DNA of 33,477 bases, from contig NZ_JALCYY010000053.1 in NCBI RefSeq assembly GCF_022690685.1, positions 1 through 33,477 on the forward strand, given 5' to 3'. The notes beneath the pieces were generated by a model. The model was not told the origin of the DNA, did not search any database, and was given only the letters and a program-made list of their open reading frames with translations. Shown here piece by piece: positions 4,621 to 31,254 of this stretch. Every line of letters begins with the position of its first letter. Position 1 is the stretch's first letter. The DNA comes from Anaeromyxobacter terrae. GTDB lineage: Bacteria > Myxococcota > Myxococcia > Myxococcales > Anaeromyxobacteraceae. The position numbers and the translations under genes were made by a program.

Positions 4621-5120
4621 CGCTGCACCTCCGTCTCCGAGGCCGCTCCGGCCTGCTCCGCGGCGCGCCGCCGGAGCCCGCCGAGCCGCTTGCGGACCGC
4701 GGCGGCCGTGAGCCCCACCTCGCGCCCGACCTCCTCGAGCGTCAGGCCGTCCACGTAGTGGAGCACCGCCATCACCCGGGTGGACTCCTGCTCGCGCCCG
4801 AGCAGCCGTCCGACGACGAGGCGCGACAGCGAGCGCGCCTCGGGCTCGTCCGCCGCCGCGATGGCGAGGAGCGCCGCCTCGTCCCGGTCCTCCGGCCGGC
4901 GCCGCTCGGTGCGGAGCAGGTTCAGGCAGACGCGGGTGGCGATGCGCAGGAGGAGCGACGCGGGGGCCTCGTCGCGGAGCCGGTCCTCCGCCCGGAGCAG
5001 GTTCACGAACGTGTCGTGCATGGCGTCCACGGCCCTCTCCTCGTCACGCAGGAGGCGGCGGCAGCGGCGCAGGACCATCGGCGCGAGGTCCCGGTAGTAC
5101 GCGTCGACGTCGACCGCCAC
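4617..5120 (-). CDS. ECF-type RNA polymerase sigma factor
   Basis: A 167-residue sigma-70 family protein of ECF size. Region 2 lies at about residues 8-75 ('AVDAMHDTFVNLLRAEDRL' for promoter -10 contact). Region 4 lies at about 110-155, with the helix-turn-helix 'LTLEEVGREVGLTAAAVRKRLGGLRRR'. The start is a GTG at 5118-5120, preceded on the minus strand by a purine-rich ribosome site (ggagagagaggg) at the right distance. It is the first of three translationally coupled genes (sigma, ActD-like, caspase). ECF genes usually autoregulate, so a promoter is expected in 5121-5206 or upstream of the next gene, but no -35/-10 could be assigned with confidence. Confidence 0.93.
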   Translation of the reverse strand: MAVDVDAYYRDLAPMVLRRCRRLLRDEERAVDAMHDTFVNLLRAEDRLRDEAPASLLLRIATRVCLNLLRTERRRPEDRDEAALLAIAAADEPEARSLSRLVVGRLLGREQESTRVMAVLHYVDGLTLEEVGREVGLTAAAVRKRLGGLRRRAAEQAGAASETEVQR

Positions 5121-6292: not shown

Positions 6293-6540
6293 GGGCGTCG
6301 TCCTCCTTCCCGTGGCCGAGGGGCGGTCGGCGGGGTCGGAGGGAGGAACACCGCCACGTGCCGCGTGCGCTACCGCGGCGCGGGCGATTCACATTTCTTC
6401 ACGCTCCGACCAGATCGGGGCAACCTGCGGCCGCCATGCTCCGCGCCGCCTCGGCGAGGGGCGGTAGCGGGATCTCCGCGCCGCGGTGTTCCCTCGCACA
6501 ACACGAGCGCCGCACCTTCGCGGTCAACGGAGCGTCACAC
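6293..6540. promoter_or_regulatory. Divergent promoter region between surface-repeat gene and exbB operon
   Basis: This 248-bp gap separates two divergent transcription units, so it must hold promoters in both directions. It is slightly less GC-rich around 6386-6420 and 6490-6540. No perfect palindrome, Fur-box-like sequence or confident -35/-10 pair was seen by eye. Confidence 0.4.
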
Positions 6541-7239
6541 ATGACGAAGTCCCTCTTCGAGCTCTTCACGCGCGCCGGCGCCGAGTGGGTGATGCTGCTC
6601 CTCGTCGGCCTCTCCGCCGCCTCGGTCACGGTCATCCTCGAGCGGGCCCTGTACTTCGCCCTCCGCCGCCGCACCTCTCCGGACCTCCTCACCCTCCTCA
6701 TGGACGGGCGCCTCGAGGAGGCGCGGGCCCGCATCGAGGGCCGCCGCGGCCTGGAGGCGGAGGTGGCGCGGGCGGCGCTCGACGCCGCCGGCGGCGGCCC
6801 CGCCGCGGTGCAGGAGGCGGTGGCCTGCACCATCGCGGACCGCCGGCTCGGCTACGAGCGAGGGCTCTCCTTTCTCGGCACGCTCGGCAACAACGCCCCC
6901 TTCCTCGGCCTCTTCGGCACGGTGGTCGGGATCATCCGGGCCTTCTCCGACCTCGCGGTGGGCGGCCCGAAGGGCGCCGGTGCGTCGGCGGTGATGTCCG
7001 GCATCTCGGAGGCGCTCGTCGCGACCGCGGTCGGCATCTTCGTGGCCATCCCGGCGGTCGTCGCGTTCAACGGCTTCCAGCGCTGGCTGCGCACGCTCGT
7101 CACGCGCGCCGAGGCGATCGGCCACGCCCTCGCGTCGCACCTCGAGCGCGACGACGTCCGCGCCGCGGCCCGAGCCCGGCTCGACCACGGCAGGCCCGCG
7201 CGGCGCCCCGAGCCCCACGAGTCGAAGGGCGCCGCCTAG
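6541..7239 (+). CDS. exbB: ExbB/TolQ/MotA-family proton channel subunit
   Basis: A 232-residue inner-membrane protein starting at MTKSLFELF. An open frame extends further upstream but has no coding character. It has the three-helix arrangement of the family: helix 1 near residues 15-35, then a cytoplasmic region, then 'GTLGNNAPFLGLFGTVVGIIRAF' and 'ALVATAVGIFVAIPAVVAFN', which form the conserved channel-lining helices with the family's Thr/Gly pattern. With ExbD it uses the proton gradient to drive TonB. It is the first gene of a five-gene plus-strand operon. TolQ is the alternative name, but the neighbours (TonB and a receptor) favour ExbB. Confidence 0.92.
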   Translation: MTKSLFELFTRAGAEWVMLLLVGLSAASVTVILERALYFALRRRTSPDLLTLLMDGRLEEARARIEGRRGLEAEVARAALDAAGGGPAAVQEAVACTIADRRLGYERGLSFLGTLGNNAPFLGLFGTVVGIIRAFSDLAVGGPKGAGASAVMSGISEALVATAVGIFVAIPAVVAFNGFQRWLRTLVTRAEAIGHALASHLERDDVRAAARARLDHGRPARRPEPHESKGAA

Positions 7240-7269
7240 CGGCGGCCGCGAGAGCACCGGAGCCCGACC

Positions 7270-7695
7270 ATGGCCGCCCACTCGAACGGCAGCGACGAGG
7301 CGATCACCGGCATCAACGTGACGCCCCTCGTCGACATCACCCTCGTCCTCCTCATCATCTTCATGGTCACCGCCTCCTACATCGTGAAGGAGAGCATCGA
7401 GGTCGACCTGCCCCGCGCCGCCAGCGGCGGCGAGACCGTCGGCCCGACCCTCGCGTTCGCGCTCGATCGGGACGGGAAGCTCTTCCTGGACGGAAGGCCC
7501 GTCGGCCGCGCCGAGGCCCGCGCCGCCGTCCGCGCGGCGCTCGCGCGGAGCGCCGACGCGCGGGCGCTCATCGGCGCGGACCGGGCCGTGCCTCACGGCG
7601 AGGTGGTGTCCGTGATCGATCTCGTGAAGAGCGAGGGGCTCACCCGCTTCGCGATCCAGATCGAGCACGACGCGTCGGGGGAAGGCGCGCCGTGA
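7270..7695 (+). CDS. exbD: ExbD/TolR-family energy-transducing protein
   Basis: A 141-residue protein with a short cytoplasmic N-terminus and one membrane helix, 'VTPLVDITLVLLIIFMVTA'. That helix contains the conserved proton-carrying aspartate (Asp22). A periplasmic domain (about 45-138) follows, ending 'HGEVVSVIDLVKSEGLTRFAIQ', typical of the family. It works with ExbB as stator and proton path. The gene follows exbB by 30 bp, and its TGA overlaps the GTG start of tonB. Confidence 0.93.
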   Translation: MAAHSNGSDEAITGINVTPLVDITLVLLIIFMVTASYIVKESIEVDLPRAASGGETVGPTLAFALDRDGKLFLDGRPVGRAEARAAVRAALARSADARALIGADRAVPHGEVVSVIDLVKSEGLTRFAIQIEHDASGEGAP

Positions 7696-8432
7696 CCCCG
7701 GCGCCTTCCGACGGTCCGCCGCGGGGCCGCACGCTCGCCGCGATGGCGCTGGCCTCGCTGGCGATCCACGCCGGCGGGTTCGCCTGGGCCGGTCGCCTCG
7801 AGCCGCGTCAGGCCGCGAGGCCCGCGCCCGTGGTGGTCGAGTTCGAGGCCGCGCGGCCTCCGCCGCCGGCGCCCGCGCCGCGTCCTCCCGCGGAGCGACC
7901 GGCACCCCGCCGCGTCGCCATCGCGAGGCTCCCGCCGCCGACGGCGGAGCCGCCTCCTCCGCCGCCGCCGAACGAGCCGCCGCCGCCCGCCGCTCCGGCG
8001 GCGCGCGCCGTCCCGCGCGTCGGGGTGTCGCTCTCCTCGACCACGACGGGCGGCGGCTTCGCGGTGGGCGTCGGGAACACGCTCCACGGCAGGGCGTCCG
8101 AGATCGCCGCCGATCCCGACGCGGTGAAGCCGTACGCCGCCCCGCGGACCGCGCCCGCCCGGCTCTCCGCGCAGCCGCGCCTGCTCGAGCGGCCGGAGAT
8201 CCCGTATCCCCCCGAGGCCCGGCGGGAGGGGCTCGAGGGGCAGGTCGTGCTGCTCCTGCGGATCGACGCGGAGGGCCGGGTCGCGGCGGCACGCCTCCTC
8301 TCCGCGCCGGGCCCTGCCCTCGGCGAGGCCGCCCGGGCCGCCGCGCTCCGCTTTCGCTTCACGCCTCCCCTTCTCGACGGCGAGGCCGTCGAGACCGAGA
8401 TCCGCTTCACCTACACCTTCGTCCTGGAGTGA
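7692..8432 (+). CDS. tonB: TonB-family energy transducer
   Basis: About 246 residues from a GTG at 7692 that overlaps the exbD stop; an internal ATG at 7742 is a less likely alternative. It has a short hydrophobic N-terminal anchor ('LAAMALASLAIHAGGFAWA', about 15-33). A proline-rich spacer of the kind that spans the periplasm follows (about 50-100, with PPPP runs). The C-terminal TonB domain (about 165-246) contains 'IPYPPEARREGLEGQVVLLLRID' and 'FRFTPPLLDGEAVE'. The middle section holds a Ser/Thr/Gly-rich stretch (VGVSLSSTTTGGGFAVGVGN) often seen in myxobacterial TonB proteins. It delivers ExbBD-derived force to the receptor encoded next. Confidence 0.9.
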   Translation: MTPAPSDGPPRGRTLAAMALASLAIHAGGFAWAGRLEPRQAARPAPVVVEFEAARPPPPAPAPRPPAERPAPRRVAIARLPPPTAEPPPPPPPNEPPPPAAPAARAVPRVGVSLSSTTTGGGFAVGVGNTLHGRASEIAADPDAVKPYAAPRTAPARLSAQPRLLERPEIPYPPEARREGLEGQVVLLLRIDAEGRVAAARLLSAPGPALGEAARAAALRFRFTPPLLDGEAVETEIRFTYTFVLE

Positions 8433-8437
8433 ACTCC

Positions 8438-11029
8438 ATGCGCCGCTCGCCCTTCACCGCGCTCGCCCTGCTCGGCCTCCTCCTCGGCGGCGCGGCCCCC
8501 GCCCGCGCCGAGACGGAGCCGAAGGAGACCGGGGTCCTCACGCGCGCTCCGGCCGTGGTCGAGCCGGTCGAGCCGGAATACCCGGAGGCCGCCCGCGCGG
8601 CGGGGCTGACCGGCGTCGTCACCCTCGAGGTCGAGATCTCCGAGACCGGCGAGGTCACCGACGCGGTGGTGACCGGCCCCGCCGGCCAGGGGTTCGACGA
8701 GGCCGCCCTCGCCGCCGCCCGGAAGCTCCGCTTCTCCCCGGCGGAGATCGACGGAGCGCCGGCACCGGTCCGGATCGAGTATCGCTTCACGTTCTCGCTG
8801 TCCGCGCCGCCCGCCACTGCGCCCGCGCCGCCGCCGCTGAACCTCCTCGGCCGCGTGCTCGAGCGCGGCACCCGGCTCCCGATCGCGGGCGCGATGGTGG
8901 AGGCCGGCGGCCAGCTCGCCCACACCGACGGCGAGGGACGGTTCGCGCTCGCCGGCGTGGCGGACGGCGCGGTGCAGGTGGTCGTGACGGACGTCGACCA
9001 CGCCCGCCTCGAGTCGGTGGAGACCGTCGAGCCGGGCAAGGCGACCCAGGTGACCTACTGGCTCCAGAAGACCACCGCCGCGGGCGAGTACGAGGCGGTG
9101 GTGGTGGGCGAGCGGGAGGAGAAGGAGGTCTCGCACGTCGCGATCGCAGCGGGAGAGATCCGGCGCGTCGCGGGCGTCTCGGGCGACGCGGTGAAGGTGA
9201 TCCAGAACCTCCCCGGCATGGCCCGCTCCTTCCTGAGCGGCGAGATGATCGTCCGCGGCGGCAACGCTCGCGACACGCGCGTTTACGTGGACGACGAGGA
9301 GGTGCCCGCGGTCTTCCACTTCGGCGGCCTCACAAGCGTCTACTCGTCGGAGCTCCTGAAGGACGTCGAGTTCGAGGCGGGGAACTTCGGCGTCCGCTCG
9401 GGGCGAGCGATCGGCGGCCGCGTGAACCTCGTCACCCGCGATCCCGGCGAGCGGACCCACACGCTCGCCGACGTGAACCTGTACCACGCGACCGCGCTCT
9501 ACGAGGGCCGGCCGTCAGAGGACCTCGGGATCGCGATCGCCGCCCGGCGCTCCTACGCGGACGCGGTCGTGACCCGCGCGGTCGAGTCGATGGACGACCC
9601 GCCCGGCGTGAGCACCGCGCCTCGCTACTACGACCTGCAGCTGAAGGCCGCGTGGAAGGCGACCCCCGACGACACGGTCCGCCTCGACGTCTTCGGCTCG
9701 GACGACCGCATGGTCCTGACCGGGGTCGACGACGACCAGTCGCTCGAGGACCTGAGCTTCCTCGAGTACGGCACCCGCTTCTACCGGGCCGGGCTCCGCT
9801 GGGATCACCGCGCGAGCGAGGCGACCCGGCTCCGGCTCGCGCTCGGCGGCGGCTGGCAGGACATGGGCATCGACGCCGCCGGCCAGTTCCGGATGGTGCA
9901 GGAGCTCTGGAGCACGCACTTCCGCGCCGAGGTCCATCACGAGCTCGCGCCGCGGGTGAAGCTCGTCACGGGCGTGGACGGGCAGTGGTACCCGAGGGTC
10001 AAGATCGAGGTGGACGCGCCCCCCATCCCTCCGCCCGGCCAGGTCCCGAGCCCGACCGCCGAGACCCGCCGCTTCGCCACGACCATGGACGGGCTCGAGG
10101 CGGGAGCGTTCGTGGAGGCCACCCTCGAGCCCGTCGACGGGCTCTTCGTCGTCCCCGGCGTGCGCGCCGACGTGCACCGCGCGCTCGCGAACCTCTCCTG
10201 GGTGGATCCCCGCCTCGCCGTCCGCTGGCAGCTCCGGCCCGAGACCGCCCTCAAGGGCGCGGTCGGCCTCTACCACCAGGCGCCGCCGTTCCCTTACGTC
10301 ACCGAGGAGTTCGGCAACCCCGCGCTCCGCGAGGAGGGCGCCTGGCAGTACGCGCTCGGCGCGGAGCAGCGGCTCCTGCCGCGCCTCCTCCTCGACGTGC
10401 AGCTCTACTACAAGCGGCTCTTCGATCTCGCCCTCCCCTCCGACGCGGTGATCACGCGGGACGGCCAGCTCGTCGCCGAGCGCTACCGGAGCGCGGGCAC
10501 GGGGCGTTCCTACGGCGCGGAGCTGCTCCTGCGCTGGGACCCGGACGGCCGCTTCTTCGGGTGGATCTCCTACTCGCTCTCGCGCGCGGAGCGGGGCGAG
10601 TCCGTCGCGGGCGGCCGGCTCGAGAGCGAGGGGGACGCCTTCGACCAGCCTCACAACGTGGTCGCGGTGGGCACGGTCGAGCTGCCCGAGCTCTGGCAGG
10701 GCCTCTCCGCCGGTTTCCGCGCCCGCTACACGAGCGGAAATCCGTACGAGCCCGTCCACGCCGCCGTGTACGACGCGGACGCCGATCGGTACCAGCCGAT
10801 CCAGACCGGCGCGCTGACGGGGCGCATGCCGCCGTTCTTCCAGCTCGACCTCCGCGTCGACAAGAAGTGGACGGCCCGCACCTGGACGTTCGCGGCGTAC
10901 GTCGAGGTCCAGAACGTCACCAACCGTGAGAACCCCGAGGCCGCCGCGTACAGCTTCGACTACTCGCAGCACGGCTGGTACTCGGGCCTCCCGCTCTTCC
11001 CCTCCTTCGGCCTGCGCGCCGAGTACTAG
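8438..11029 (+). CDS. TonB-dependent outer-membrane receptor with an N-terminal TonB C-terminal-like domain
   Basis: 863 residues from ATG 8438 (an in-frame GTG sits 9 bp earlier). The signal peptide ends near APARA (24). Residues about 30-115 are a TonB C-terminal-like domain ('VEPEYPEAARAAGLTGVVTL', 'KLRFSPAEIDGAPAPVRIEY'). A carboxypeptidase-regulatory-like beta sandwich follows (about 125-205, 'LLGRVLERGTRLPIAGAMV'), then the plug (about 215-330, 'IVRGGNARDTRVYVDDEEVP') and a beta-barrel to the end. The substrate cannot be read from the sequence. Carrying a TonB-like domain on a receptor is unusual outside myxobacteria. It follows tonB by 5 bp. Confidence 0.9.
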   Translation: MRRSPFTALALLGLLLGGAAPARAETEPKETGVLTRAPAVVEPVEPEYPEAARAAGLTGVVTLEVEISETGEVTDAVVTGPAGQGFDEAALAAARKLRFSPAEIDGAPAPVRIEYRFTFSLSAPPATAPAPPPLNLLGRVLERGTRLPIAGAMVEAGGQLAHTDGEGRFALAGVADGAVQVVVTDVDHARLESVETVEPGKATQVTYWLQKTTAAGEYEAVVVGEREEKEVSHVAIAAGEIRRVAGVSGDAVKVIQNLPGMARSFLSGEMIVRGGNARDTRVYVDDEEVPAVFHFGGLTSVYSSELLKDVEFEAGNFGVRSGRAIGGRVNLVTRDPGERTHTLADVNLYHATALYEGRPSEDLGIAIAARRSYADAVVTRAVESMDDPPGVSTAPRYYDLQLKAAWKATPDDTVRLDVFGSDDRMVLTGVDDDQSLEDLSFLEYGTRFYRAGLRWDHRASEATRLRLALGGGWQDMGIDAAGQFRMVQELWSTHFRAEVHHELAPRVKLVTGVDGQWYPRVKIEVDAPPIPPPGQVPSPTAETRRFATTMDGLEAGAFVEATLEPVDGLFVVPGVRADVHRALANLSWVDPRLAVRWQLRPETALKGAVGLYHQAPPFPYVTEEFGNPALREEGAWQYALGAEQRLLPRLLLDVQLYYKRLFDLALPSDAVITRDGQLVAERYRSAGTGRSYGAELLLRWDPDGRFFGWISYSLSRAERGESVAGGRLESEGDAFDQPHNVVAVGTVELPELWQGLSAGFRARYTSGNPYEPVHAAVYDADADRYQPIQTGALTGRMPPFFQLDLRVDKKWTARTWTFAAYVEVQNVTNRENPEAAAYSFDYSQHGWYSGLPLFPSFGLRAEY

Positions 11030-14733: not shown

Positions 14734-14794
14734 GGGAAGTCACTTCCGGTATTCACCGTAAGTGCTCCCTCGTCGCCCCGGCCGTCAGACACGG

Positions 14795-16483
14795 ATGGTA
14801 TGGGTTCACGCGATGGACGTCGTGCGCCCGAACCCTCCCGCACCTCTCGCGACCGCCTCGACGGTCGCGCTGGATGCGCTCGCGGCGGAGGCGTGGCTGC
14901 TCGAGCCGCCGCCGCCGCACGAGCGAAAGGGCGTCATGCGCGACGAGGCGGCGTTCCTGCTCGACCGGCTCCTCACGACCGTGGCGCGCGGGCACGGCGC
15001 GCTCGAGGTCGCGATCGGCCGTGGGCTCGCGGCGCTCGCGGAGCGAGACGGCGCGATGCGGTTCGGGTACGCGAGCGTCGGCGACTACGCGCGCGAGCGG
15101 CTGGGGATCGGTGCCGGCACCGCCCAGAAGCTGGCCCGGCTCGCGCGGGCGCTGCGCGACCGGCCTGTCCTCGCCGAGGCGGTCCGGCGCGGGGAGGTGA
15201 GCGCGCGCAAGGCGGAGACCGTGCTGCCGGTCGCGCGCTGCGAGGCGGAGGAGCGCTGGGTCGCGCTCGCGCGGACCGAGACGGTGCGGGCGCTCGCGGC
15301 GGCGGTGCGGGCGGAGAGCGCCTCCGACACGGGCGACGACGAGGCGTGGGAGCGCGTCTCGGTTCAGCTCACGCCCGCCGGCCGCGCGAAGCTCGACGAG
15401 GCGATGGCGCTCGCGGGCAAGGTCCTCGGCGCGACGGCGCCGCGGTGGCAGCGCCTCGAGGCGATCTGCGAGGAGTTCCTCGGCGCGCATCCGGTGGGGG
15501 CGTTCCCGGACGGCGGGGACGAGGGCGCGCAGGACAGTGCGCTGCGCGGGCCGGCCGCCGAGTGGCTCGAGGCGGCGAAGGCGGGGCTCGAGGAGGAGTA
15601 CGGGCGCTGGGCGTTCCTCGGGAAGGTCGCTCCGGTCGAGGCGGAGGTGAGCGTCGAGCTCGACGGCGGCATGGACGTGATGGGCGTGGACGCGGAGCTC
15701 CGCCGGCTCGCCGCGATGCGGGACCGCTGGGACGAGCTCGTCGGGCACCTCGGGATGCTCGTCCGGATGCTGGGCCTGTGGCGCGACATGGGCTTCGCCT
15801 CCTTCGGCCACTACTGCGAGGAGCGGCTCGGGATGGCGACGCGCACGGTCGAGCAGCGGGTCGCGCTCGAGCGGAGGCTCCACGCGCTGCCGGCGCTCAG
15901 GCAGGCGATGCGCGACCGGCGCGTCTCGTACGAGCAGGCGCGGCTCGTGGCGGAGGTCGCGGACGATCGCTCCGTCGAGGACTGGATCCGCCGGGCGCAG
16001 GGCACGACCTGCATCGCGCTGCGCCGCGAGATCGAGGCGGAGCAGGAGGCGCAGATGTGCGCGCGCGCCGAGCTGGACCTGCGCGTGCCCCGGCGGGTCG
16101 GACGCCTGCTCGAGGCGGCGGTCCGGGCGGCCCGCGCCGACGCGGACCGCTGGCTCTCGCCCGCGGAGTGCCTCGAGCGGATGGCGGAGCACTTCGTCTC
16201 CACCTGGAAACCGGCGCTCGCGGAGCGGAGCACGCCGCAGCGGCGGGCGATCGCGCGCGACGGCGGCCTCTGCCTCGTGCCGGGCTGCAGCCGTGCGGCG
16301 GTCCACGCGCACCACATCGTCTTCCGCTCGCGCGGCGGCGGGGACGAGCCGCCGAATCTGGCGTCCCTGTGCGCTGCCCACCACCTGCGGGGCATCCACG
16401 GAGGGTTCGTCGAGATCCGCGGCGCGGCGCCCGACCGGCTCACGTGGCGGCTCGGCAGCACGGCGCGACGGGCTGCGCGGTGA
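14795..16483 (+). CDS. HNH endonuclease with duplicated DUF222-like N-terminal modules
   Basis: About 562 residues from ATG 14795; GTG 14762 and ATG 14813 are also possible and none has a clear ribosome site. The C-terminus is a complete HNH nuclease: Cys493-LVPG-Cys498, His504-A-His506-His507, Asn521, then C-AA-His529-His530, the zinc-stabilised beta-beta-alpha-metal form. The long helical N-terminal part contains two related modules: 'FGYASVGDYARERLGIGAGTAQKLARL' (about 87-113) and 'MGFASFGHYCEERLGMATRTVEQRV' (about 330-354). Each is followed by a 'LAEAVRRGEVSARKAETV' / 'LRQAMRDRRVSYEQARLV' segment. Such DUF222-like HNH proteins are often multicopy in genomes; their function is unclear. It lies just right of repeat copy 2. 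Confidence 0.85.
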   Translation: MVWVHAMDVVRPNPPAPLATASTVALDALAAEAWLLEPPPPHERKGVMRDEAAFLLDRLLTTVARGHGALEVAIGRGLAALAERDGAMRFGYASVGDYARERLGIGAGTAQKLARLARALRDRPVLAEAVRRGEVSARKAETVLPVARCEAEERWVALARTETVRALAAAVRAESASDTGDDEAWERVSVQLTPAGRAKLDEAMALAGKVLGATAPRWQRLEAICEEFLGAHPVGAFPDGGDEGAQDSALRGPAAEWLEAAKAGLEEEYGRWAFLGKVAPVEAEVSVELDGGMDVMGVDAELRRLAAMRDRWDELVGHLGMLVRMLGLWRDMGFASFGHYCEERLGMATRTVEQRVALERRLHALPALRQAMRDRRVSYEQARLVAEVADDRSVEDWIRRAQGTTCIALRREIEAEQEAQMCARAELDLRVPRRVGRLLEAAVRAARADADRWLSPAECLERMAEHFVSTWKPALAERSTPQRRAIARDGGLCLVPGCSRAAVHAHHIVFRSRGGGDEPPNLASLCAAHHLRGIHGGFVEIRGAAPDRLTWRLGSTARRAAR

Positions 16484-18975: not shown

Positions 18976-21900
18976 ATGGGGGCACCGGAGGCGCCGGAGA
19001 CCAGGACGCGCCGGACAGGCGGCGGCGTCCGGGCTCGCGACGGGCTCTGCGGCATCTGCCCCGCGGGCTGCTGGGTGCGCGCCCACCTCGAGGGCGATCG
19101 GCTCGTCGGGGTGGAGCCGCTGCCCGATCACCCGCTCGGCATGCTCTGCACGATCGGGCGTCACTCGCCCGAGATCGTCCACTCGCCCCACCGGGTGCGC
19201 CAGCCCCTCCGCCGCTCTGGCCCCAAGGGCCGACACGCGTTCGAGCCCGTCTCCTGGGACGCCGCCTACGCGCTCCTCGCCGGGCGCCTCTCGGCCATCA
19301 AGCGGGAGCACGGCGCCGAGGCGACCGCGATCTACACCGGCCGCGGTGCGTTCGAGCTCTCGCTCTGCGACGTGTTCCAGCCGGCCGGCGTCGCCGTCTC
19401 GTCCGCCTCGAGCGTCCTCTTCCCGTTCGGCTCGCCCAACACCCTCGGGGTCGGCGCGCTCTGCTACGTCGCCTTCGCGATGATCGCGCCGCACGTCACG
19501 ATGGGCGCGATGCTGCAGGGCCTCGACGCCGACCTCGACCAGGCCGAGCTCGTCGTCCTGTGGGGGGCGAACCCGGCGACCGACTCGCCGCCGACGGCCC
19601 ACCACCAGGTCGTGCGCGCCCGCCAGCGCGGCGCCCAGGTGATCGCGATCGACCCGCGCCGGAACGACACCGCGCGGGCCGTCGGCGCGGAGTGGATCCC
19701 GATCCGCCCCGGCACCGACGGCGCGCTCGCGCTCGCCCTCGTCGAGGTGCTGATCGAGGAGGAGCTCTTCGACGAGGGGTTCGCGCGCGACTGGACCGTC
19801 GGCTTCGAGGAGCTCGCCCGGCTCGCGCAGCACTACCGGCCGGAGCGCGTCGAGGGGATCACCGGCGTGCCCGCCGGCACCATCCGCGCCCTCGCGCGCC
19901 GCATCGCGGCCGCCCGCGGCGCGTGCCCCGTGACCTACACCGGCCTCGAGTACTCCGGGAACGGCGTGCAGGCCATCCGCGCGCTCCTCACGCTGTGGGG
20001 CCTCGCCGGGCAGCTCGACGTCCCCGGCGGCCTCGTCTTCCGCATGCGCGACGGCGCGTTCCCGCAGAACCGCCGCCACCTCCAGCCGAACCCCGCCGTC
20101 GGAAAGGCGCTCGGGCGCGAGCGCTTCCCCCTCTACACGCGCTACCGCGGCGAGTCTCACGCGATCGCCCTGCCCCGCTCGGTGCTCGAGGGCGATCCGT
20201 ACCGGATCCGCGCGCTCCTCGTGCACGGTGCGTCGATCCTCACCGCCTGGCCGGAGCCGGCGCTGTGGCGCCGCACGCTCGCCGGCCTCGACTTCCTCGT
20301 CTGCATCGACCGCTTCCTCACCGCGGACGCGGCGTTCGCGGACCTCGTCCTGCCGGCGGCGACCGGCTACGAGATCACCTCCTACATGCGCTACGGGCCG
20401 CTCTTCAAGATCCGCGAGCCGCTCGTGCCGCCCGTGGGCGACGCGCGCAACGACCTCCTCATCATGGCCGGGCTCGCCGAGCGGCTCGGCTACGGGCATC
20501 TGTATCCCCAGTCCGAGGAGGCGCTCTTGCGCCACGCGCTCGAGGGGACCGGCTTCACGCTCGAGCAGGTGCGGGCGGCGGGGGGAGAGGCGCGGGTGCC
20601 CGCCCCGTTCCTGCAGTATCGCAAGTGGGAGAAGGGGCTCCTCCGGCCGGACGGCAGGCCCGGCTTCGACACGCCCTCCGGGAAGTTCGAGATCGCGTCG
20701 TCGATCCTCGCGGAGCACGGCTACGACCCGCTGCCGGTCTACGTCGAGCCGCCGGAGAGCCCGGCGAGCCGGCCCGACCTCGCGCGCAGTCACCCGCTCG
20801 TCTTCAACTCCGGAGCGCGCGGCTTCCACGACTTCCGCAGCCAGCACCATGGCGTGCCCGGCCTCGCGGCGCTCTCGCCCGAGCCGCTCGCGACCCTCAG
20901 CGCGGAGGACGCGGCCGCGCGCGGGATCTCCGGCGGGGATCCGGTGTGGGTCGAGACGCCGCGCGGGCGCGCCCGCTTCCGCGCCCACGTGACGCCGGAT
21001 CTCGTGCCCGGCGCGATCGACGCGAGCATGGGCGGCGGCGGGCCGCTCGGGAGCGAGGCGTGGCGCACGTGCAACGTGAACGCCCTCACCGACCTCGCCC
21101 AGTGCGATCCCATCTCGGGCTTCCCGGTCTACAAGGCGCTGCTCTGCGAGGTGCGGCGCGCCGACGGCGTGGCGGCGGCGCCGGCGGCGAACGGCGCGCC
21201 GGAGCGCGAGGATGGGCCGCGGATCGAGGCGGTCGCGCTCCGCCCCATCTACCTCGACCACGCCGCGACCACCCCGCTCGCGCCGGCGGTCGCCGAGGCG
21301 ATGGCGCCGTTCCTCGCGGGCGCGTTCGGGAACCCGTCGAGCGTCCACCCGCGCGGCGCCGAGGCGCGCGCCGCGGTCGAGGACGCGCGCCGAAAGGTGG
21401 CCCGCGCGCTCGAGTGCACCGCGCGGCGCGTGGTGTTCACCGGCTCCGGTTCCGAGTCGGACAACCTCGCCGTGAAGGGGGGCGCCTGGGCGCGCCGGGC
21501 ACGGGGAAGGCACGTCGTCACTACCGCCATCGAGCACCCCGCCGTGCTGGAGGCGTGCCGTGCCCTCGTGCCGCAGGGGTTCGAGCTCACCGTCGTGCCG
21601 GTGGAGCGGGACGGGCGCGTCGCGCCGGAGCGGGTCCTCGCCGCGCTGCGGGACGACACGGTGCTCGTCTCGCTCATGCTCGTGAACAACGAGGTGGGGA
21701 CGATCCAGCCGGTGGCGGCGCTCGCGCCGGCGGTGCGCGCGCGCGGCGCGCTCCTCCACGCCGACGCGGTCCAGGCGCTCGGGAAGGTCCCCCTCGACGT
21801 GGAGGCGCTGGGCGTGGACCTCCTCACCGTCTCGGCGCACAAGATCCACGGGCCGAAGGGCGTCGGCGCGCTCTACGTCCGCGCCGGCGTCGCGCTCGAG

Positions 21901-22401
21901 CCGCTCGTGCACGGCGGCGGGCAGGAGCACGGGCTGCGCTCGGGCACCGAGAACGTCGCCGGCCTGGTCGGGTTCGGGCGCGCCTGCGAGCTCGCCGTGC
22001 AGCGGCTCTCCTCCGGAGAGGTGGACCGGCTGGCGGCGCTGCGCGACCGGCTCGAGGCGGGCCTGCTCAGGCTCGCCCCGGACGCGCGGCGGAACGGCGA
22101 CGGCGCCCGCATCGCGACCACGCTCGACGTGACCCTGCCCGGGATCCGCGGCGAGTCGCTCGTGCTCGCGCTCGGCCGCCGCGCCGTGCACTTCTCGTCC
22201 GGCTCGGCCTGCCACTCCGGCGATCCCGAGCCGTCGCGCACGCTCCTCGCCATGGGGCTCACGGCCGAGGACGCGCACTGCTCGGTGCGCTTCTCCCTCG
22301 GCGCAGGGCAGACCGAGGCGGACGTGGACGAGGCGCTCGCCCGGATCTCCGACACGCTCGCCGCCTCGCGCGCGGCGGTGCGGTTCCTCGCGTGCCGGTG
22401 A
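18976..22401 (+). CDS. Molybdopterin oxidoreductase fused to a NifS/IscS-type cysteine desulfurase
   Basis: One uninterrupted 1141-residue frame from ATG 18976, with ggagg at 18966-18970. Residues ~20-726 form a DMSO-reductase-family enzyme. The [4Fe-4S] ligands are Cys25, Cys28, Cys32 and Cys58. 'FGSPNTLGVGALC' places a probable Mo-ligand Cys163, similar to polysulfide/thiosulfate reductases. A molydopterin-binding C-domain (about 600-726) ends 'VYKALLCEV'. After a ~30-residue Ala/Pro-rich linker, residues 758-1141 form a full cysteine desulfurase: 'IYLDHAATTP', 'GSESDNLA', 'NNEVGTIQP', PLP lysine Lys956 in SAHKIHGPKG, 'GLRSGTENV', and catalytic Cys1079 in SSGSACHSGDPE. Both halves look complete and active. 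There is no Tat signal, so it is cytoplasmic. No electron-transfer partner is encoded alongside. See findings. Confidence 0.93.
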   Translation: MGAPEAPETRTRRTGGGVRARDGLCGICPAGCWVRAHLEGDRLVGVEPLPDHPLGMLCTIGRHSPEIVHSPHRVRQPLRRSGPKGRHAFEPVSWDAAYALLAGRLSAIKREHGAEATAIYTGRGAFELSLCDVFQPAGVAVSSASSVLFPFGSPNTLGVGALCYVAFAMIAPHVTMGAMLQGLDADLDQAELVVLWGANPATDSPPTAHHQVVRARQRGAQVIAIDPRRNDTARAVGAEWIPIRPGTDGALALALVEVLIEEELFDEGFARDWTVGFEELARLAQHYRPERVEGITGVPAGTIRALARRIAAARGACPVTYTGLEYSGNGVQAIRALLTLWGLAGQLDVPGGLVFRMRDGAFPQNRRHLQPNPAVGKALGRERFPLYTRYRGESHAIALPRSVLEGDPYRIRALLVHGASILTAWPEPALWRRTLAGLDFLVCIDRFLTADAAFADLVLPAATGYEITSYMRYGPLFKIREPLVPPVGDARNDLLIMAGLAERLGYGHLYPQSEEALLRHALEGTGFTLEQVRAAGGEARVPAPFLQYRKWEKGLLRPDGRPGFDTPSGKFEIASSILAEHGYDPLPVYVEPPESPASRPDLARSHPLVFNSGARGFHDFRSQHHGVPGLAALSPEPLATLSAEDAAARGISGGDPVWVETPRGRARFRAHVTPDLVPGAIDASMGGGGPLGSEAWRTCNVNALTDLAQCDPISGFPVYKALLCEVRRADGVAAAPAANGAPEREDGPRIEAVALRPIYLDHAATTPLAPAVAEAMAPFLAGAFGNPSSVHPRGAEARAAVEDARRKVARALECTARRVVFTGSGSESDNLAVKGGAWARRARGRHVVTTAIEHPAVLEACRALVPQGFELTVVPVERDGRVAPERVLAALRDDTVLVSLMLVNNEVGTIQPVAALAPAVRARGALLHADAVQALGKVPLDVEALGVDLLTVSAHKIHGPKGVGALYVRAGVALEPLVHGGGQEHGLRSGTENVAGLVGFGRACELAVQRLSSGEVDRLAALRDRLEAGLLRLAPDARRNGDGARIATTLDVTLPGIRGESLVLALGRRAVHFSSGSACHSGDPEPSRTLLAMGLTAEDAHCSVRFSLGAGQTEADVDEALARISDTLAASRAAVRFLACR

Positions 22402-24828: not shown

Positions 24829-27800
24829 ATGCCCAAGCTTCCCGTCATCTCCGAATGGCCGGTCGCACGGCAGCTCGTCTCCGGCGACGGCTCCGGCCTC
24901 GGCGCGAGCGCGATGAGCGAGCGGACGCGCGAGCTCGCGCCCCGCACCGCCTCGGCGGACCGCGTGGTCCGCTCCATCTGCCCGTACTGCGCGGTCGGCT
25001 GCGGCCAGCTCGTGTACGTCAAGGACGAGCGGATCATCGACGTCGAGGGCGATCCCGACTCGCCGATGTCCCAGGGCTGCCTCTGCCCGAAGGGCGCCGC
25101 CACCTTCCAGCTCGTCACCGGCTCGCACCGGGAGCAGCACGTCCTCTACCGCCGCCCGGGCGGCACGGCCTGGGAGCGGATCCCGCTCGAGCGGGCGATG
25201 GACATGGTCGCCGAGCGCGTGAAGCGCTCCCGCGACGAGACGTTCGAGGAGCGGATCGAGGATCCCGGCGCGAAGCACCACGGCGCGCGGGTGCGGCGCA
25301 CGCTCGGGGTCGCGCACCTCGGTGGCGCCACCCTCGACAACGAGGAGAACTACCTCCTCAAGAAGCTCTACACCGCGCTCGGCATCGTGCAGGTGGAGAA
25401 CCAGGCCAGGATCTGACACAGCTCCACGGTCCCCGGTCTGGGGATCTCGTTCGGACGCGGCGGCGCGACGACCTTCCCCGGCGATCTCCAGAACGCCGAC
25501 TGGATCGTCGTGCAGGGCTCGAACATGGCGGAGTGCCACCCGGTCGCCTTCCGCTGGGTGATGGAGGCGAAGAACCGCGGCGCGACCGTCATCCACGTGG
25601 ACCCGCGCTTCACGCGGACGAGCGCGGTGGCGGACCTCCACGTCCCCATCCGCCCGGGCTCGGACATCGCCTTCCTCGGCGGCCTCGTCCGCCACGTCAT
25701 CGAGAACGAGCGCTGGTTCAAGGAGTACGTTCTCCATTACACGAACGCCTCGACGCTCGTGGACGAGCGCTTCCAGGACACCGAGGACCTGGAGGGCCTC
25801 TTCAGCGGGTTCGACTCGAGGTCGAACACCTACGACCCCGAGACCTGGTCGTACCAGGGCGTCCAAGGGGTGGTGCCCGCCGCCGGCCACAAGCAGCTCG
25901 TCGCGGAGAAGGGCGCCGGGAAGGTGCCGCTGCACGGCGCGAACATCCTCGAGCGGAGGACCGACCCGACCCTGCAGCACCCGCGCTGCGTCTTCCAGAT
26001 CCTCAAGCGCCACTTCTCCCGCTACACGCCGGCGGTGGTGGCGGAGACGTGCGGGATCCCCGAGCCCCTCTTCCTCGAGGTGGCCGAGACGCTGTGCCGG
26101 AACTCGGGTCGCGAGCGCACCGGCGCGTTCTGCTACGCGGTCGGCTGGACCCAGCACTCCGTGGGCGTCCAGTACATCCGCACCGCGTCGATCCTCCAGC
26201 TCCTCCTCGGCAACATCGGCCGGCCGGGCGGCGGGATCATGGCGCTGCGCGGCCACGCCTCGATCCAGGGCTCGACCGACATCCCGACGCTGTTCGACCT
26301 GCTCCCCGGGTACCTGCCGATGCCGCACTCCCTCCTGCCGGACCGCGGGCTCGAGCGGTACGTCGCGAACAACCGCTCGCCCTCGGGCTGGTGGAGCGAG
26401 ATGCCGAAGTACGTCGTCTCGCTCCTCAAGGCGTGGTTCGGCGACGCGGCGACGCGGGAGAACGACTGGGGGTTCGATCTCCTGCCCCGCCTCTCCGGCA
26501 ACCACTCGCACATGACGACCGTGTCCGAGATGGCCGACGGCAAGGTGAAGGGGTACCTCGTCGTGGGCGAGAACCCGACCGTCGGCTCGATGCACGGGAG
26601 CCTCCACCGCAAGGGCCTGCGCAAGCTCGACTGGCTCGTCGTGCGCGACTTCGCGCTCACCGAGACCGCCGAGTTCTGGCGCACGGCGCCGGAGATCGCG
26701 CGCGGCGAGGTCCGGACCGAGGAGATCCCGACGGAGGTGTTCTTCTTCCCGGCCGCCGCGCACACCGAGAAGGACGGCTCGTTCACGAACACGCAGCGCT
26801 GCCTGCAGTGGCACCACCGCGCGATCGAGCCGGCCGGCGACTGCCGGAGCGATCTCTGGTTCACGTACCACCTCGGCAAGCGCCTCAAGCGGCTCTACGC
26901 GGAGTCGCCGGGGCCGAACGCCGAGGCGATCCGGGCGCTCACCTGGGACTACCCGACGAAGGGGAAGGACGAGGACCCCGACGCCGAGGCGGTGCTGCGC
27001 GAGGTGAACGGCTTCACCGTCGCGGACGGGAGGCCGGTGGCGGGGTTCAAGGAGCTCGCCGACGACGGCTCCACTGCGTGCGGCTGCTGGATCTACTCCG
27101 GGTGCTACAAGGACGGGGTGAACCAGCCCGCCCGGCGACGGCCCCAGGGCGAGCAGCACTGGGTCGCGCCGGAGTGGGGCTGGTCCTGGCCCGCGAACCG
27201 CCGCATCCTCTACAACCGCGCGTCGGCGGATCCGGAGGGGCGCCCCTGGTCCGAGCGGAAGCGCTACGTCTGGTGGGACGCGGAGAAGGGCGCGTGGTCC
27301 GGCTACGACGTGCCGGACTTCATCGCCGACCGCCCGCCGTCGTACCGGCCGCCGCCCGACGCCGAGGGGATCGCGACCCTCGCCGGCGACGATCCCTTCA
27401 TCATGCAGGCCGACGGCAAGGGCTGGCTGTTCGCGCCGTCCGGGCTCCTCGACGGGCCGCTCCCGACCCACTACGAGCCGGAGGAATCCGTCCTCGAGAA
27501 CCCGCTCTACCCGCAGCAGTGCAACCCGGCGCGGATGGAGTGGCACCGGCCCGACAACCCCTACCACCGGGCCTTCGGCGATCCGCGCTTCCCCTACGTG
27601 GTCACGACGTACCGGCTAACCGAGCACCACACCGCCGGCGGGATGAGCCGCTGGCTCTCGTGGCTCTCCGAGCTGCAACCCGAGATGTTCTGCGAGGTCT
27701 CGCCGGAGCTCGCGGCGGAGAAGGGGCTCGTGAACGGGCGCTGGGCGACCGTCACGACCGCGCGCGGCGAGATCGAGTGCCGCGTGCTCGTGACCGAGCG

Positions 27801-28113
27801 GATGAAGCCGCTCCGCGTGAAGGGGCGGACGCTCCACACGATCGGCCTCCCCTACCACTGGAGCTACGTCGGGCGCGTGCGCGGCGACCCGGCGAACGAG
27901 CTCATCCCGTTCGTCGCCGACCCGAACGTCTCCATCCAGGAGTCGAAGGCGCTCACCGCGAACATCCGCGCGGGCCGCCACTCGCTCGGGCGGCGCTCCG
28001 CCACCGACGGGCTCGAGCTCCGGCAGCCGGAGCCCCCGCGCGCGCCGCCGCGGCGCGACCTGCCGGGGGTCCGCACCGCGCACCGCCACCCGCCGACCGA
28101 GCCGAGGAAGTAG
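24829..28113 (+). CDS. fdhA: Formate dehydrogenase catalytic subunit, selenocysteine-containing
   Basis: 1094 residues if the in-frame TGA at 25414-25416 is read as selenocysteine 196. The frame is open 24829-25413 and continues in phase to TAG 28111-28113. N-terminal [4Fe-4S] ligands are Cys51, Cys54, Cys58 and Cys86 ('ICPYCAVGCGQLVYV', 'CLCPKGAA'). The active-site stretch is 'ENQARI-Sec-HSSTVPGLGISFGRGG', matching the 'RxUH' signature of FdnG/FdhA enzymes. The bis-MGD-binding and C-terminal domains follow ('VVGENPTVGSMHGS', 'GLPYHWSYVGRVRGDPANEL'). There is no twin-arginine signal: the N-terminus is 'MPKLPVISEWPVARQLVSGD'. It oxidises formate or reduces CO2 with FdhB and the NrfD-like subunit. 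First gene of the operon. Confidence 0.96.
25414..25446 (+). other. UGA selenocysteine codon and SECIS hairpin in fdhA
   Basis: The UGA (25414-25416) is followed by a 7-bp stem, ggtcccc (25428-25434) paired with ggggatc (25440-25446, one G-U), closing a 5-nt loop GGUCU (25435-25439). The loop begins exactly 18 nt after the UGA. That is the same distance and the same loop sequence as in the E. coli fdhF SECIS, which SelB binds. It explains why translation passes the stop codon. Confidence 0.95.
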
Positions 28114-29051: not shown

Positions 29052-30218
29052 ATGGACGCGATGGATCCGCTGAGGCGTGAGACGGCGCTCCGCGACGGGC
29101 GGAACGTGGATCCGGAGGTGGGGCGCCTCACCGGCGAGGCCTCCGGGCAGCGCGCCTCGCCACGGCTCGCGGCGGCCGCGCTCGCGCGCGCGGAGCGGGA
29201 GGCGGCGCCCGCGGACGAGGCGGAGGGGCCGAGCTACCACGGGCTGCCGGTGCTGAAGGAGCCGGTCTGGAGGTGGATGATCCCGGCGTACTTCTACACC
29301 GGGGGGCTCGCCGGAGCGTGCGGGGTCCTGGGCGCGGCGGCGCAGCTCGCGGGCGGCCGCGGGACCTGGCCGCTCGTGCGCCGGTGCCGGGCGATCGCGG
29401 TGGGCGGGGCGGTCGCGAGCGCCGGGTTCCTCATCGCCGACCTGGGCCGGCCGGCGCGGTTCCTCGCGATGATGCGGGTCTTCCGGCCGACCTCGCCGAT
29501 GAACATGGGCACCTGGGTGCTCGCCACGTTCGGCGCGCTCAGCGGCGCGGCCGCGCTGCCGGCGCTCCTCCCGGCACCGCGCCCGCTCCGGCGCGCGGCC
29601 GACGCGGCGGGGATCGCAGCAGGGGTGGTGGGCCTCCCGCTCGTCGGCTACACCGGCGTCCTGCTCGCGAACACCGCCGTGCCGGTGTGGCAGGAGACTC
29701 GCAACACGCTGCCGATGCTGTTCGCCTTCTCCGGGGCGGTGAGCGCGGGCGCGGCGCTCGACCTGTGGCGGCCACGCGGGCCGGGCGGCGAGATGGCTCG
29801 GCGGTTCGGGCTGGTCGCGAAGGGCGGCGAGCTCGCGCTCTCGTGGGCGCTGCACCGCGAGGCCGGCCTCGAGCGGGTGGAGCGGCCTCTCCGACGCGGT
29901 GCGTCGGGCGCCCTCCTGCGCGGCGCGCGCGTGCTGCTCGGCGCATCGGCGGTGGTCGACCTCGTCCGCCGCGCCTCCCCCGCGCTGCGGATCGCCTCGG
30001 GGGTCCTCGGGACGCTCGGGACCCTCGCGCTGCGGTTCGGGGTGGTGGCCGCGGGGCATGCCTCCGCCCGGGATCCGCACGCCACGTTCGCGTTGCAGCG
30101 CGCTGGGCGCGGCGCCGCCGACCTCGCTAGGAAGGGGGAGGCGCCCGGACCGATGCCCGCACCGCGCGGGATCGACGCGACGGGCCAGGAATCGGTGGAG
30201 CATGGAGCGAACCCCTGA
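29052..30218 (+). CDS. NrfD/PsrC-family membrane subunit of formate dehydrogenase
   Basis: 388 residues with a soluble, charged N-terminus (1-70) followed by about eight hydrophobic segments. The family look is clear in 'WRWMIPAYFYTGGLAGACGVLGAAAQL', 'ADLGRPARFLAMMRVFRPTSPMNMGTWVL' and 'GVLLANTAVPVWQETRNTLPMLFAFSG'. NrfD proteins carry no haem and exchange electrons with quinones, replacing the cytochrome b subunit (FdnI) of other formate dehydrogenases. The gene begins 3 bp after fdhB, and its end overlaps moaA by 17 bp. Confidence 0.9.
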   Translation: MDAMDPLRRETALRDGRNVDPEVGRLTGEASGQRASPRLAAAALARAEREAAPADEAEGPSYHGLPVLKEPVWRWMIPAYFYTGGLAGACGVLGAAAQLAGGRGTWPLVRRCRAIAVGGAVASAGFLIADLGRPARFLAMMRVFRPTSPMNMGTWVLATFGALSGAAALPALLPAPRPLRRAADAAGIAAGVVGLPLVGYTGVLLANTAVPVWQETRNTLPMLFAFSGAVSAGAALDLWRPRGPGGEMARRFGLVAKGGELALSWALHREAGLERVERPLRRGASGALLRGARVLLGASAVVDLVRRASPALRIASGVLGTLGTLALRFGVVAAGHASARDPHATFALQRAGRGAADLARKGEAPGPMPAPRGIDATGQESVEHGANP

Positions 30219-31254
30219 GCTCGTGACGCTGGAGGCCGCTCCGCGCTCCGCCGAGGGCTGCGTGAACGCCGCGCGCCCGCCGGCGGGGAAGCTCGTCGAC
30301 GCCCAGGGTCGCAACATCCATTACCTCCGGGTGTCGCTCACGGACCGCTGCAACTTCCGGTGCACCTACTGCTCTCCGGCGGCGCACGAGCCGCCGGACG
30401 CGCTCCTCTCGCGAGCGGAGCTCGCCCGGCTGTTCCGGCTCTTCGCCGCGCTGGGCGTGCGGCGCATCCGACTCACCGGCGGCGAGCCGACCCTGCGCAA
30501 GGACGTCGTCGAGATCGTGGCGGACGCCGCTGCGACGCCGGGGATCGAGGACGTCGCCATCACCACGAACGGCCACCGCCTCGCCGAGCTCGTCGAGCCG
30601 CTCCAGGCGGCGGGGCTCGGCGCGCTCAACGTTTCCCTCGACACGCTCGCGCCGGAGCGGCTCCGCGGCGTCTCCGGCCAGGCGGCGCGGCTCGACCGCA
30701 TCCTCGCCGGCATCGACGCGGCGGCCGGGCGGTTCCGCTCGCTCAAGATCAACACCGTCGTGATGCCCGGCGTGAACGAGGACGAGGTGGCGGCGCTCGT
30801 GCGCTATGCCTGGGATCGCGGCGCCCTGCCCCGCTTCATCGAGCAGATGCCCTTCGGCGGGGGCGTGCCGGTGCCGCTCTCGGAGGTTCGCAGGCGGCTC
30901 ACGGAGGCAGGCTTCACGCTCGCCCCGGACGTCTTCCGCGGCTGGGGACCGGCCCGCCACATGCGCGGCCGGGATCGAGATGGCCGCGAGGGGCTCGTCG
31001 GCTTCATCGGCGCGATGACCGAGAACTTCTGCGAGGACTGCAACCGGGCGAGGATCGCGGCGGACGGCGGGTTCCAGGCCTGCCTCGGCGGCGAGGATCG
31101 GGTACAGCTCAGGGATCGGATGCGGGCGGGCGACCGGGACGAGGCGCTCGCCGAGGCGGTGGCGGGCGCGCTGGGGCGGAAGGCGCCGCGCCACCGCATG
31201 GAGGAGGCGGGCGCCGGGCTCGTGCTGCTGGCGATGCGCGGCATCGGGGGCTAG
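30202..31254 (+). CDS. moaA: GTP 3',8-cyclase (MoaA), molybdenum cofactor biosynthesis
   Basis: 350 residues from ATG 30202, overlapping the nrfD-like gene by 17 bp. The radical-SAM cluster ligands are Cys50, Cys54 and Cys57 in 'DRCNFRCTYC'. 'RLTGGEPTLRKD' is the SAM-binding GGE motif. The second, C-terminal [4Fe-4S] cluster is marked by 'FCEDCNRARIAADGGFQACLGG'. The protein ends in the Gly-Gly tail (RGIGG) required for activity in the family. It performs the first step of molybdopterin synthesis from GTP. Its place inside the formate dehydrogenase operon implies co-regulated cofactor supply. Confidence 0.95.
   Translation: MERTPELVTLEAAPRSAEGCVNAARPPAGKLVDAQGRNIHYLRVSLTDRCNFRCTYCSPAAHEPPDALLSRAELARLFRLFAALGVRRIRLTGGEPTLRKDVVEIVADAAATPGIEDVAITTNGHRLAELVEPLQAAGLGALNVSLDTLAPERLRGVSGQAARLDRILAGIDAAAGRFRSLKINTVVMPGVNEDEVAALVRYAWDRGALPRFIEQMPFGGGVPVPLSEVRRRLTEAGFTLAPDVFRGWGPARHMRGRDRDGREGLVGFIGAMTENFCEDCNRARIAADGGFQACLGGEDRVQLRDRMRAGDRDEALAEAVAGALGRKAPRHRMEEAGAGLVLLAMRGIGG

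What the first reader, a model, noticed from the sequence alone, without database searches (positions are those of the whole stretch)
18976..22401. Single-chain fusion of a molybdopterin oxidoreductase and a cysteine desulfurase
The sequence shows one frame with a complete [4Fe-4S] Mo-enzyme (Cys25/28/32/58, candidate Mo ligand Cys163) and a complete desulfurase (Lys956, Cys1079) joined by a ~30-residue linker with no stop. Established knowledge: formate dehydrogenases need a terminal sulfur on Mo, moved from IscS by FdhD, and in eukaryotes a NifS-like domain (ABA3/MOCOS) sulfurates Moco. Inference: this protein may sulfurate its own cofactor in cis, or hand sulfur (or selenium) to the selenocysteine formate dehydrogenase encoded 2.4 kb away. 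An alternative is that cysteine-derived persulfide is itself the substrate, since the Mo domain resembles polysulfide/thiosulfate reductases. I do not know of a described system of this architecture.
Basis: partly seen in the sequence, partly recalled or inferred. Interest (0 to 1): 0.88.

Follow-up and report, generated by a model that had tools for sequence, protein, structure and literature searches.

The report
Molybdenum-dependent ergothioneine synthase (MES) gene
The fused protein is real and is the Anaeromyxobacter version of a described enzyme that uses a molybdenum cofactor and sulfur taken from cysteine to make the antioxidant ergothioneine without oxygen; what is mildly new is that this genome also carries the oxygen-dependent enzyme for the same step.

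Summary
In detail: one uninterrupted frame (18976-22401, +, 1141 aa) joins an acetylene-hydratase-like bis-MGD/[4Fe-4S] module to an IscS/NifS cysteine desulfurase. The fusion is not an assembly artefact: full-length relatives (55-93% identity) occur in about 40 genomes across bacteria and archaea. In 32 of 42 genomes with the fused gene, a histidine methyltransferase, EgtD, lies next to it. [quoted passage not shown] Every residue shown essential in Caldithrix MES is present with near-identical spacing. Most likely the desulfurase takes sulfur from cysteine, passes it in cis to Mo (or W), and Mo=S sulfurates C2 of trimethylhistidine. Supplying sulfur to the nearby selenocysteine formate dehydrogenase is not supported: the genome has its own FdhD.

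Beyond the paper: the window genome, the isolate A. soli SG29 and a third Anaeromyxobacteraceae genome also encode the O2-dependent EgtB in an EgtB-EgtD pair, so one EgtD could feed an oxic and an anoxic route. A Methanophagales lineage has lost the desulfurase half but keeps EgtD. The gene itself is a new member of a known kind; interest is modest.

The parts
18976..22401 (+). MES: metallopterin-dependent ergothioneine synthase, 1141 aa, single ORF
   Evidence: residues match Caldithrix MES (PMC9516567)
18966..18970 (+). GGAGG ribosome-binding site 5 nt before ATG 18976
   Evidence: sequence read
19048..19149 (+). [4Fe-4S] cysteines 25, 28, 32, 58 (CaMES Cys14/17/21/48)
   Evidence: spacing 3,4,26 vs 3,4,27 in CaMES
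19366..19368 (+). Cys131, in every fused MES row covering it and in the desulfurase-less form but in none of the 10 compared homologues; lies in a short insertion relative to acetylene hydratase
19462..19464 (+). Cys163, Mo/W ligand (CaMES Cys153)
   Evidence: paper
21169..21246 (+). interdomain linker, about residues 732-757, low-confidence in the model
21247..22398 (+). C-terminal IscS/NifS-type cysteine desulfurase domain (residues 758-1141)
21841..21843 (+). Lys956, PLP Schiff-base lysine (CaMES Lys952)
22210..22212 (+). Cys1079, catalytic persulfide cysteine (CaMES Cys1074)
22279..22281 (+). Cys1102 (CaMES Cys1097, dispensable there)
22393..22395 (+). Cys1140, penultimate residue, relay cysteine (CaMES Cys1135, essential there)
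   Evidence: present in all 37 rows whose C-terminus is covered

Best explanation
The ORF encodes a metallopterin-dependent ergothioneine synthase (MES). The C-terminal PLP desulfurase removes sulfur from L-cysteine (leaving alanine) as a persulfide on Cys1079. The sulfur is relayed, within the same chain, via the penultimate Cys1140 to the bis-MGD Mo (or W) bound by Cys163, forming Mo(VI)=S. The C2 of the imidazole of N-alpha-trimethylhistidine (TMH), made by EgtD encoded elsewhere in the genome, attacks that sulfido ligand. Ergothioneine leaves and the metal is resulfurated for the next round. In Anaeromyxobacter this probably supplies ergothioneine without O2, while the EgtB encoded beside EgtD does so with O2. 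Shown elsewhere for the Caldithrix homologue: desulfurase activity, essential residues, intramolecular transfer, ergothioneine production in E. coli. Shown here: homology, residue conservation, EgtD co-occurrence and linkage, EgtB presence. Inferred: that this particular protein has the activity, the order of relay steps, and the oxic/anoxic division of labour.
For: Same architecture and length (1141 vs 1136 aa) and near-identical residue spacing as CaMES: FeS Cys to Mo Cys 105 vs 105, Lys to Cys 123 vs 122, Cys1079-1102-1140 at 23 and 38 residues in both, last Cys penultimate in both. Mo module closest to acetylene hydratase 2e7z in PDB, as reported for CaMES. EgtD (TIGR03438) in 41 of 42 genomes with fused MES (40 over the curated cut-off, one cut by a contig end) and directly adjacent in 32 (Pfam Methyltransf_33). 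The more distant stand-alone homologues that lack Cys131 have no EgtD in 3 of 4 genomes tested. Window genome has EgtD (381 bits) at C66:139513-140412 and EgtB (576 bits, cut-off 360) at C66:140484-141701.
Against: In this genome EgtD is not next to the fusion but on another contig, beside EgtB, so linkage to EgtD is borrowed from relatives. The authors described MES as confined to anaerobes, whereas Anaeromyxobacter dehalogenans grows microaerophilically (PMC2330069). No activity data exist for this protein. Caldithrix MES itself was not available for direct alignment; the comparison rests on residue numbers printed in the paper. The structure model is weak around the Mo site (mean pLDDT 65, residues 111-183 under 50).
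Confidence: 0.95

Rival explanations
1. It sulfurates its own Moco once (ABA3/MOCOS-like maturation in cis) and then acts as a polysulfide/thiosulfate-type or other oxidoreductase.
For: Mo module scores against thiosulfate reductase and formate dehydrogenase models; cis sulfur transfer is real in the homologue.
Against: Conserved linkage to EgtD, no conserved FeS/membrane subunit beside it in relatives, and direct ergothioneine production by four homologues (PMC9516567). No MOSC domain.
Confidence: 0.03
2. It provides sulfur or selenium for the selenocysteine formate dehydrogenase encoded 2.4 kb downstream.
For: Physical proximity in this window and in A. soli; Sec FDH is real (in-frame TGA).
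Against: FdhD is present in the genome (C2:53802-54554); two other IscS/NifS-type desulfurases exist (C46, C110); in most relatives the neighbour is EgtD; a convergent HelD-like gene separates MES from FDH.
Confidence: 0.01
3. Same chemistry on a different imidazole or heterocycle substrate in Anaeromyxobacter, EgtB being the only ergothioneine enzyme there.
For: EgtD is linked to EgtB, not to MES, in this genome.
Against: All eight MES-diagnostic Mo-module residues (C131, S142, S143, M169, I170, R391, F477, H625) are kept in the window protein and in those whose gene sits beside EgtD, and it is nested with them in the tree.
Confidence: 0.04

Closest known systems
Metallopterin-dependent ergothioneine synthase, MES (Caldithrix abyssi CaMES; PMC9516567)
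   Same: Domain order, length, FeS cysteines, Mo-ligand Cys, PLP Lys, catalytic Cys, penultimate relay Cys, acetylene-hydratase-like Mo module
   Different: Here the gene is unlinked from EgtD and the genome also holds an EgtB-EgtD pair; host lineage is microaerophilic rather than strictly anaerobic
Acetylene hydratase (Syntrophotalea acetylenica, PDB 2e7z)
   Same: Closest solved relative of the Mo module (4.9e-61); Cys-ligated bis-MGD, one [4Fe-4S]
   Different: The Asp in its CxxCD motif (taken, from memory, as the catalytic Asp13) aligns to Pro29; MES has a short insertion with Cys131; no desulfurase in acetylene hydratase
IscS/NifS cysteine desulfurases
   Same: Fold and catalytic residues, about 40-49% identity
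   Different: Fused; has the MES tail ending F-x-x-C-R/K; below the curated cut-offs of the stand-alone families
ABA3/MOCOS Moco sulfurase
   Same: NifS-like domain that delivers sulfur to a Mo cofactor
   Different: No MOSC domain; NifS is C-terminal; sulfur is a per-turnover substrate

Membership tests
MES (metallopterin-dependent ergothioneine synthase) | N-terminal acetylene-hydratase-like bis-MGD/[4Fe-4S] module fused to C-terminal PLP cysteine desulfurase | tested here: met
MES (metallopterin-dependent ergothioneine synthase) | Mo/W ligand Cys (CaMES Cys153) and FeS Cys14/17/21/48 | tested here: met
   Cys163 and Cys25/28/32/58, same spacing to within one residue
MES (metallopterin-dependent ergothioneine synthase) | PLP Lys952 and catalytic Cys1074 | tested here: met
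   Lys956, Cys1079
MES (metallopterin-dependent ergothioneine synthase) | Essential penultimate relay Cys1135 | tested here: met
   Cys1140 of 1141; in all 37 rows with a covered C-terminus
MES (metallopterin-dependent ergothioneine synthase) | Histidine methyltransferase EgtD in the genome | tested here: met
   C66:139513-140412, 381 bits, cut-off 291
MES (metallopterin-dependent ergothioneine synthase) | EgtD encoded next to the fusion (typical, not defining) | tested here: not met
   different contig in this genome; adjacent in 32 of 42 fused-MES genomes
MES (metallopterin-dependent ergothioneine synthase) | No EgtB in the genome (criterion by which MES was discovered, not defining) | tested here: not met
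   EgtB 576 bits, cut-off 360
MES (metallopterin-dependent ergothioneine synthase) | Ergothioneine formed from TMH and cysteine | not testable with these tools
   needs expression or assay
Acetylene hydratase | Asp in the CxxCD motif near the FeS cysteines (identified from memory as catalytic Asp13) | tested here: not met
   aligned position is Pro29
ABA3/MOCOS Moco sulfurase | N-terminal NifS-like domain with C-terminal MOSC domain | tested here: not met
   no MOSC match; desulfurase is C-terminal
Formate dehydrogenase (FdhA/FdhF) | Sec/Cys ligand followed by His | tested here: not met
   Cys163-Tyr164, conserved as CYV in the fused MES; the real FDH in the window has U-H

The most novel reading that the evidence does not exclude
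Anaeromyxobacteraceae (and a few other lineages: UBA5297 Myxococcales, Thiohalomonas) hold two unrelated sulfurating enzymes for ergothioneine, O2-dependent EgtB and O2-independent MES, fed by one EgtD, so that ergothioneine is made across the oxic-anoxic transition. This would contradict the statement that MES is restricted to anaerobes.
Probability: 0.65. Interest if true: 0.4.

Novelty: new member of a known kind. Interest (0 to 1): 0.27.

Why it matters
It turns a puzzling fusion into an identified enzyme. If both routes work, a cultivable genus with EgtB and MES in one cell lets one ask directly what ergothioneine is for without oxygen, by deleting each synthase separately. The naturally desulfurase-less form in Methanophagales tests the claim that sulfur transfer must be intramolecular. 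Cys131 is an invariant cysteine that could be a further step of the sulfur relay.

Tried and rejected
Assembly or frameshift error: rejected, fusion conserved in about 40 genomes. Formate-dehydrogenase sulfuration: rejected on FdhD presence and lack of conserved linkage. MoaA as the conserved neighbour (c1) was my first guess from its length; Pfam showed it is Methyltransf_33/EgtD. Acetylene hydratase: the CxxCD aspartate is absent. AlphaFold with a 20-row alignment gave a confident desulfurase but an unreliable Mo site, so no claim about Cys1140-Mo distance is made. Caldithrix MES could not be retrieved by name.

Full report
What is there. The frame 18976-22401 (+) reads through 1141 residues. 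Pfam finds a molybdopterin oxidoreductase module (24-721) and a class-V aminotransferase module (758-1118); NCBIfam calls the latter NifS/IscS-like, below the curated cut-offs. An ATG with GGAGG just upstream is the likely start.

Not an artefact. Full-length fused relatives were found at 55-93% identity in Myxococcota, Geobacteraceae, Desulfobacterota, Zixibacteria, Nitrospirota, Planctomycetota, Gemmatimonadota, Actinomycetota, Neomarinimicrobiota and methanogenic archaea. All FeS cysteines, the Mo-ligand cysteine, the PLP lysine, the catalytic cysteine and the penultimate cysteine are conserved wherever that part is cleanly covered.

What it makes. Clustering of neighbouring genes showed one gene beside the fusion again and again. 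Pfam identified it as Methyltransf_33, the histidine N-alpha-methyltransferase EgtD of ergothioneine biosynthesis. Counting over whole genomes, 41 of 42 genomes with a fused gene have EgtD by TIGR03438 (40 over the cut-off, one truncated at a contig end), and in 32 it is directly adjacent. The exception without EgtD is a 2.5-Mb actinomycete MAG (G064).

It is described. [quoted passage not shown] CaMES residues Cys14/17/21/48, Cys153, Lys952, Cys1074, Cys1097 and Cys1135 of 1136 correspond to Cys25/28/32/58, Cys163, Lys956, Cys1079, Cys1102 and Cys1140 of 1141 here, with spacings equal to within one residue. The paper shows that the desulfurase, Cys1074, Cys1135 and Cys153 are essential and that sulfur passes only within one chain. 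It proposes attack of the TMH imidazole on a Mo=S ligand. I adopt that mechanism by homology; nothing here tests activity.

What differs in this genome. EgtD lies on another contig directly beside an EgtB that scores 576 bits against the curated EgtB model (cut-off 360). The isolate A. soli SG29 (G005; its fused gene is the same as in L037), a third Anaeromyxobacteraceae genome (G009), a Myxococcales MAG (G024) and a Thiohalomonas MAG (G049) likewise have MES and EgtB; a Solirubrobacterales MAG (G034) has EgtB in two fragments beside EgtD. All five EgtB-over-cut-off genomes are among the eight whose MES is unlinked from EgtD, and none is among the 32 linked ones. Three of the five are one family, so the events are not independent. 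In the Anaeromyxobacteraceae, EgtB is common (14 of 24 genomes) while MES is sporadic (3 of 24; 6 of 195 in the phylum). A. dehalogenans grows microaerophilically (PMC2330069). The simplest reading, not tested, is one EgtD feeding an oxic and an anoxic sulfurating enzyme. The authors found MES by looking at genomes with EgtD and no other sulfurating enzyme, so genomes with both would have been passed over.

The formate dehydrogenase. The FDH downstream is a genuine selenoprotein frame (TGA as residue 196 of 24829-28113), but FdhD is encoded in the genome, a convergent HelD-like gene lies between, and FDH is not a recurring neighbour elsewhere.

A desulfurase-less relative. In three Methanophagales/Methanomicrobiales MAGs (L042-L044) the Mo module stands alone (about 729 aa), 62% identical to the window's, followed at once by EgtD and an FMN reductase. 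On the tree they form one lineage nested in the archaeal fused MES (SH-aLRT 99), so the desulfurase was lost. No IscS/NifS-type desulfurase was found in their genomes: only a weak class-V hit, about 34% identity, in two and none in one (MAGs may be incomplete). They keep Cys131 and Cys163 but have no Cys1079/Cys1140, so sulfur must come from elsewhere.

A candidate relay residue. Cys131, S142, S143, M169, I170, R391, F477 and H625 are invariant in 40 MES rows (fused and desulfurase-less) and absent from ten homologous Mo enzymes. Cys131 sits in an insertion relative to acetylene hydratase and was not among the residues that the parts of the paper I read describe as mutated. The predicted structure is too uncertain there to place it.

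Verdict. Real, explained, and a new member of a known enzyme class; the coexistence with EgtB is the part worth following.

Noticed in passing
L042:1918-5854, L043:7099-11065, L044:3123 onward: Desulfurase-less MES: stand-alone Mo module directly followed by EgtD and an FMN reductase in three Methanophagales/Methanomicrobiales MAGs; nested in the fused archaeal clade, no IscS/NifS-type desulfurase found in the genomes.
   Followed up: partly
L055:7054-10235, L056:7068-10232, L060:9251-12067: More distant MES-like Mo modules without desulfurase in Desulfobacterota, next to a SAM methyltransferase with a Trm112-like N-terminus (Methyltransf_11) instead of EgtD; Cys131 replaced by Lys. Possibly the same chemistry on another substrate.
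   Followed up: partly
G000:C66:139513-141701 and C55:158792-160030 (outside the window): EgtB-EgtD pair, plus a second EgtB-like protein (328 bits, under cut-off) in the same genome.
   Followed up: partly
24829-28113 (+): Selenocysteine formate dehydrogenase (NF041513, TGA at 25414-25416), with an NrfD-like gene (29052-30218) and moaA (within 29899-31254) downstream.
   Followed up: partly
8429-11029 (+): A TonB C-terminal domain (48-124) fused in front of a TonB-dependent receptor barrel (419-825), beside ExbB and ExbD genes (6358-7695).
   Followed up: no
1748-5120 (-): Caspase-domain protein (Peptidase_C14) in an apparent operon with an ECF-type sigma factor.
   Followed up: no
14762-16483 (+): 573-aa ORF with a weak, short match (47 residues, 3.7e-6) to the IscB HNH region.
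   Followed up: no
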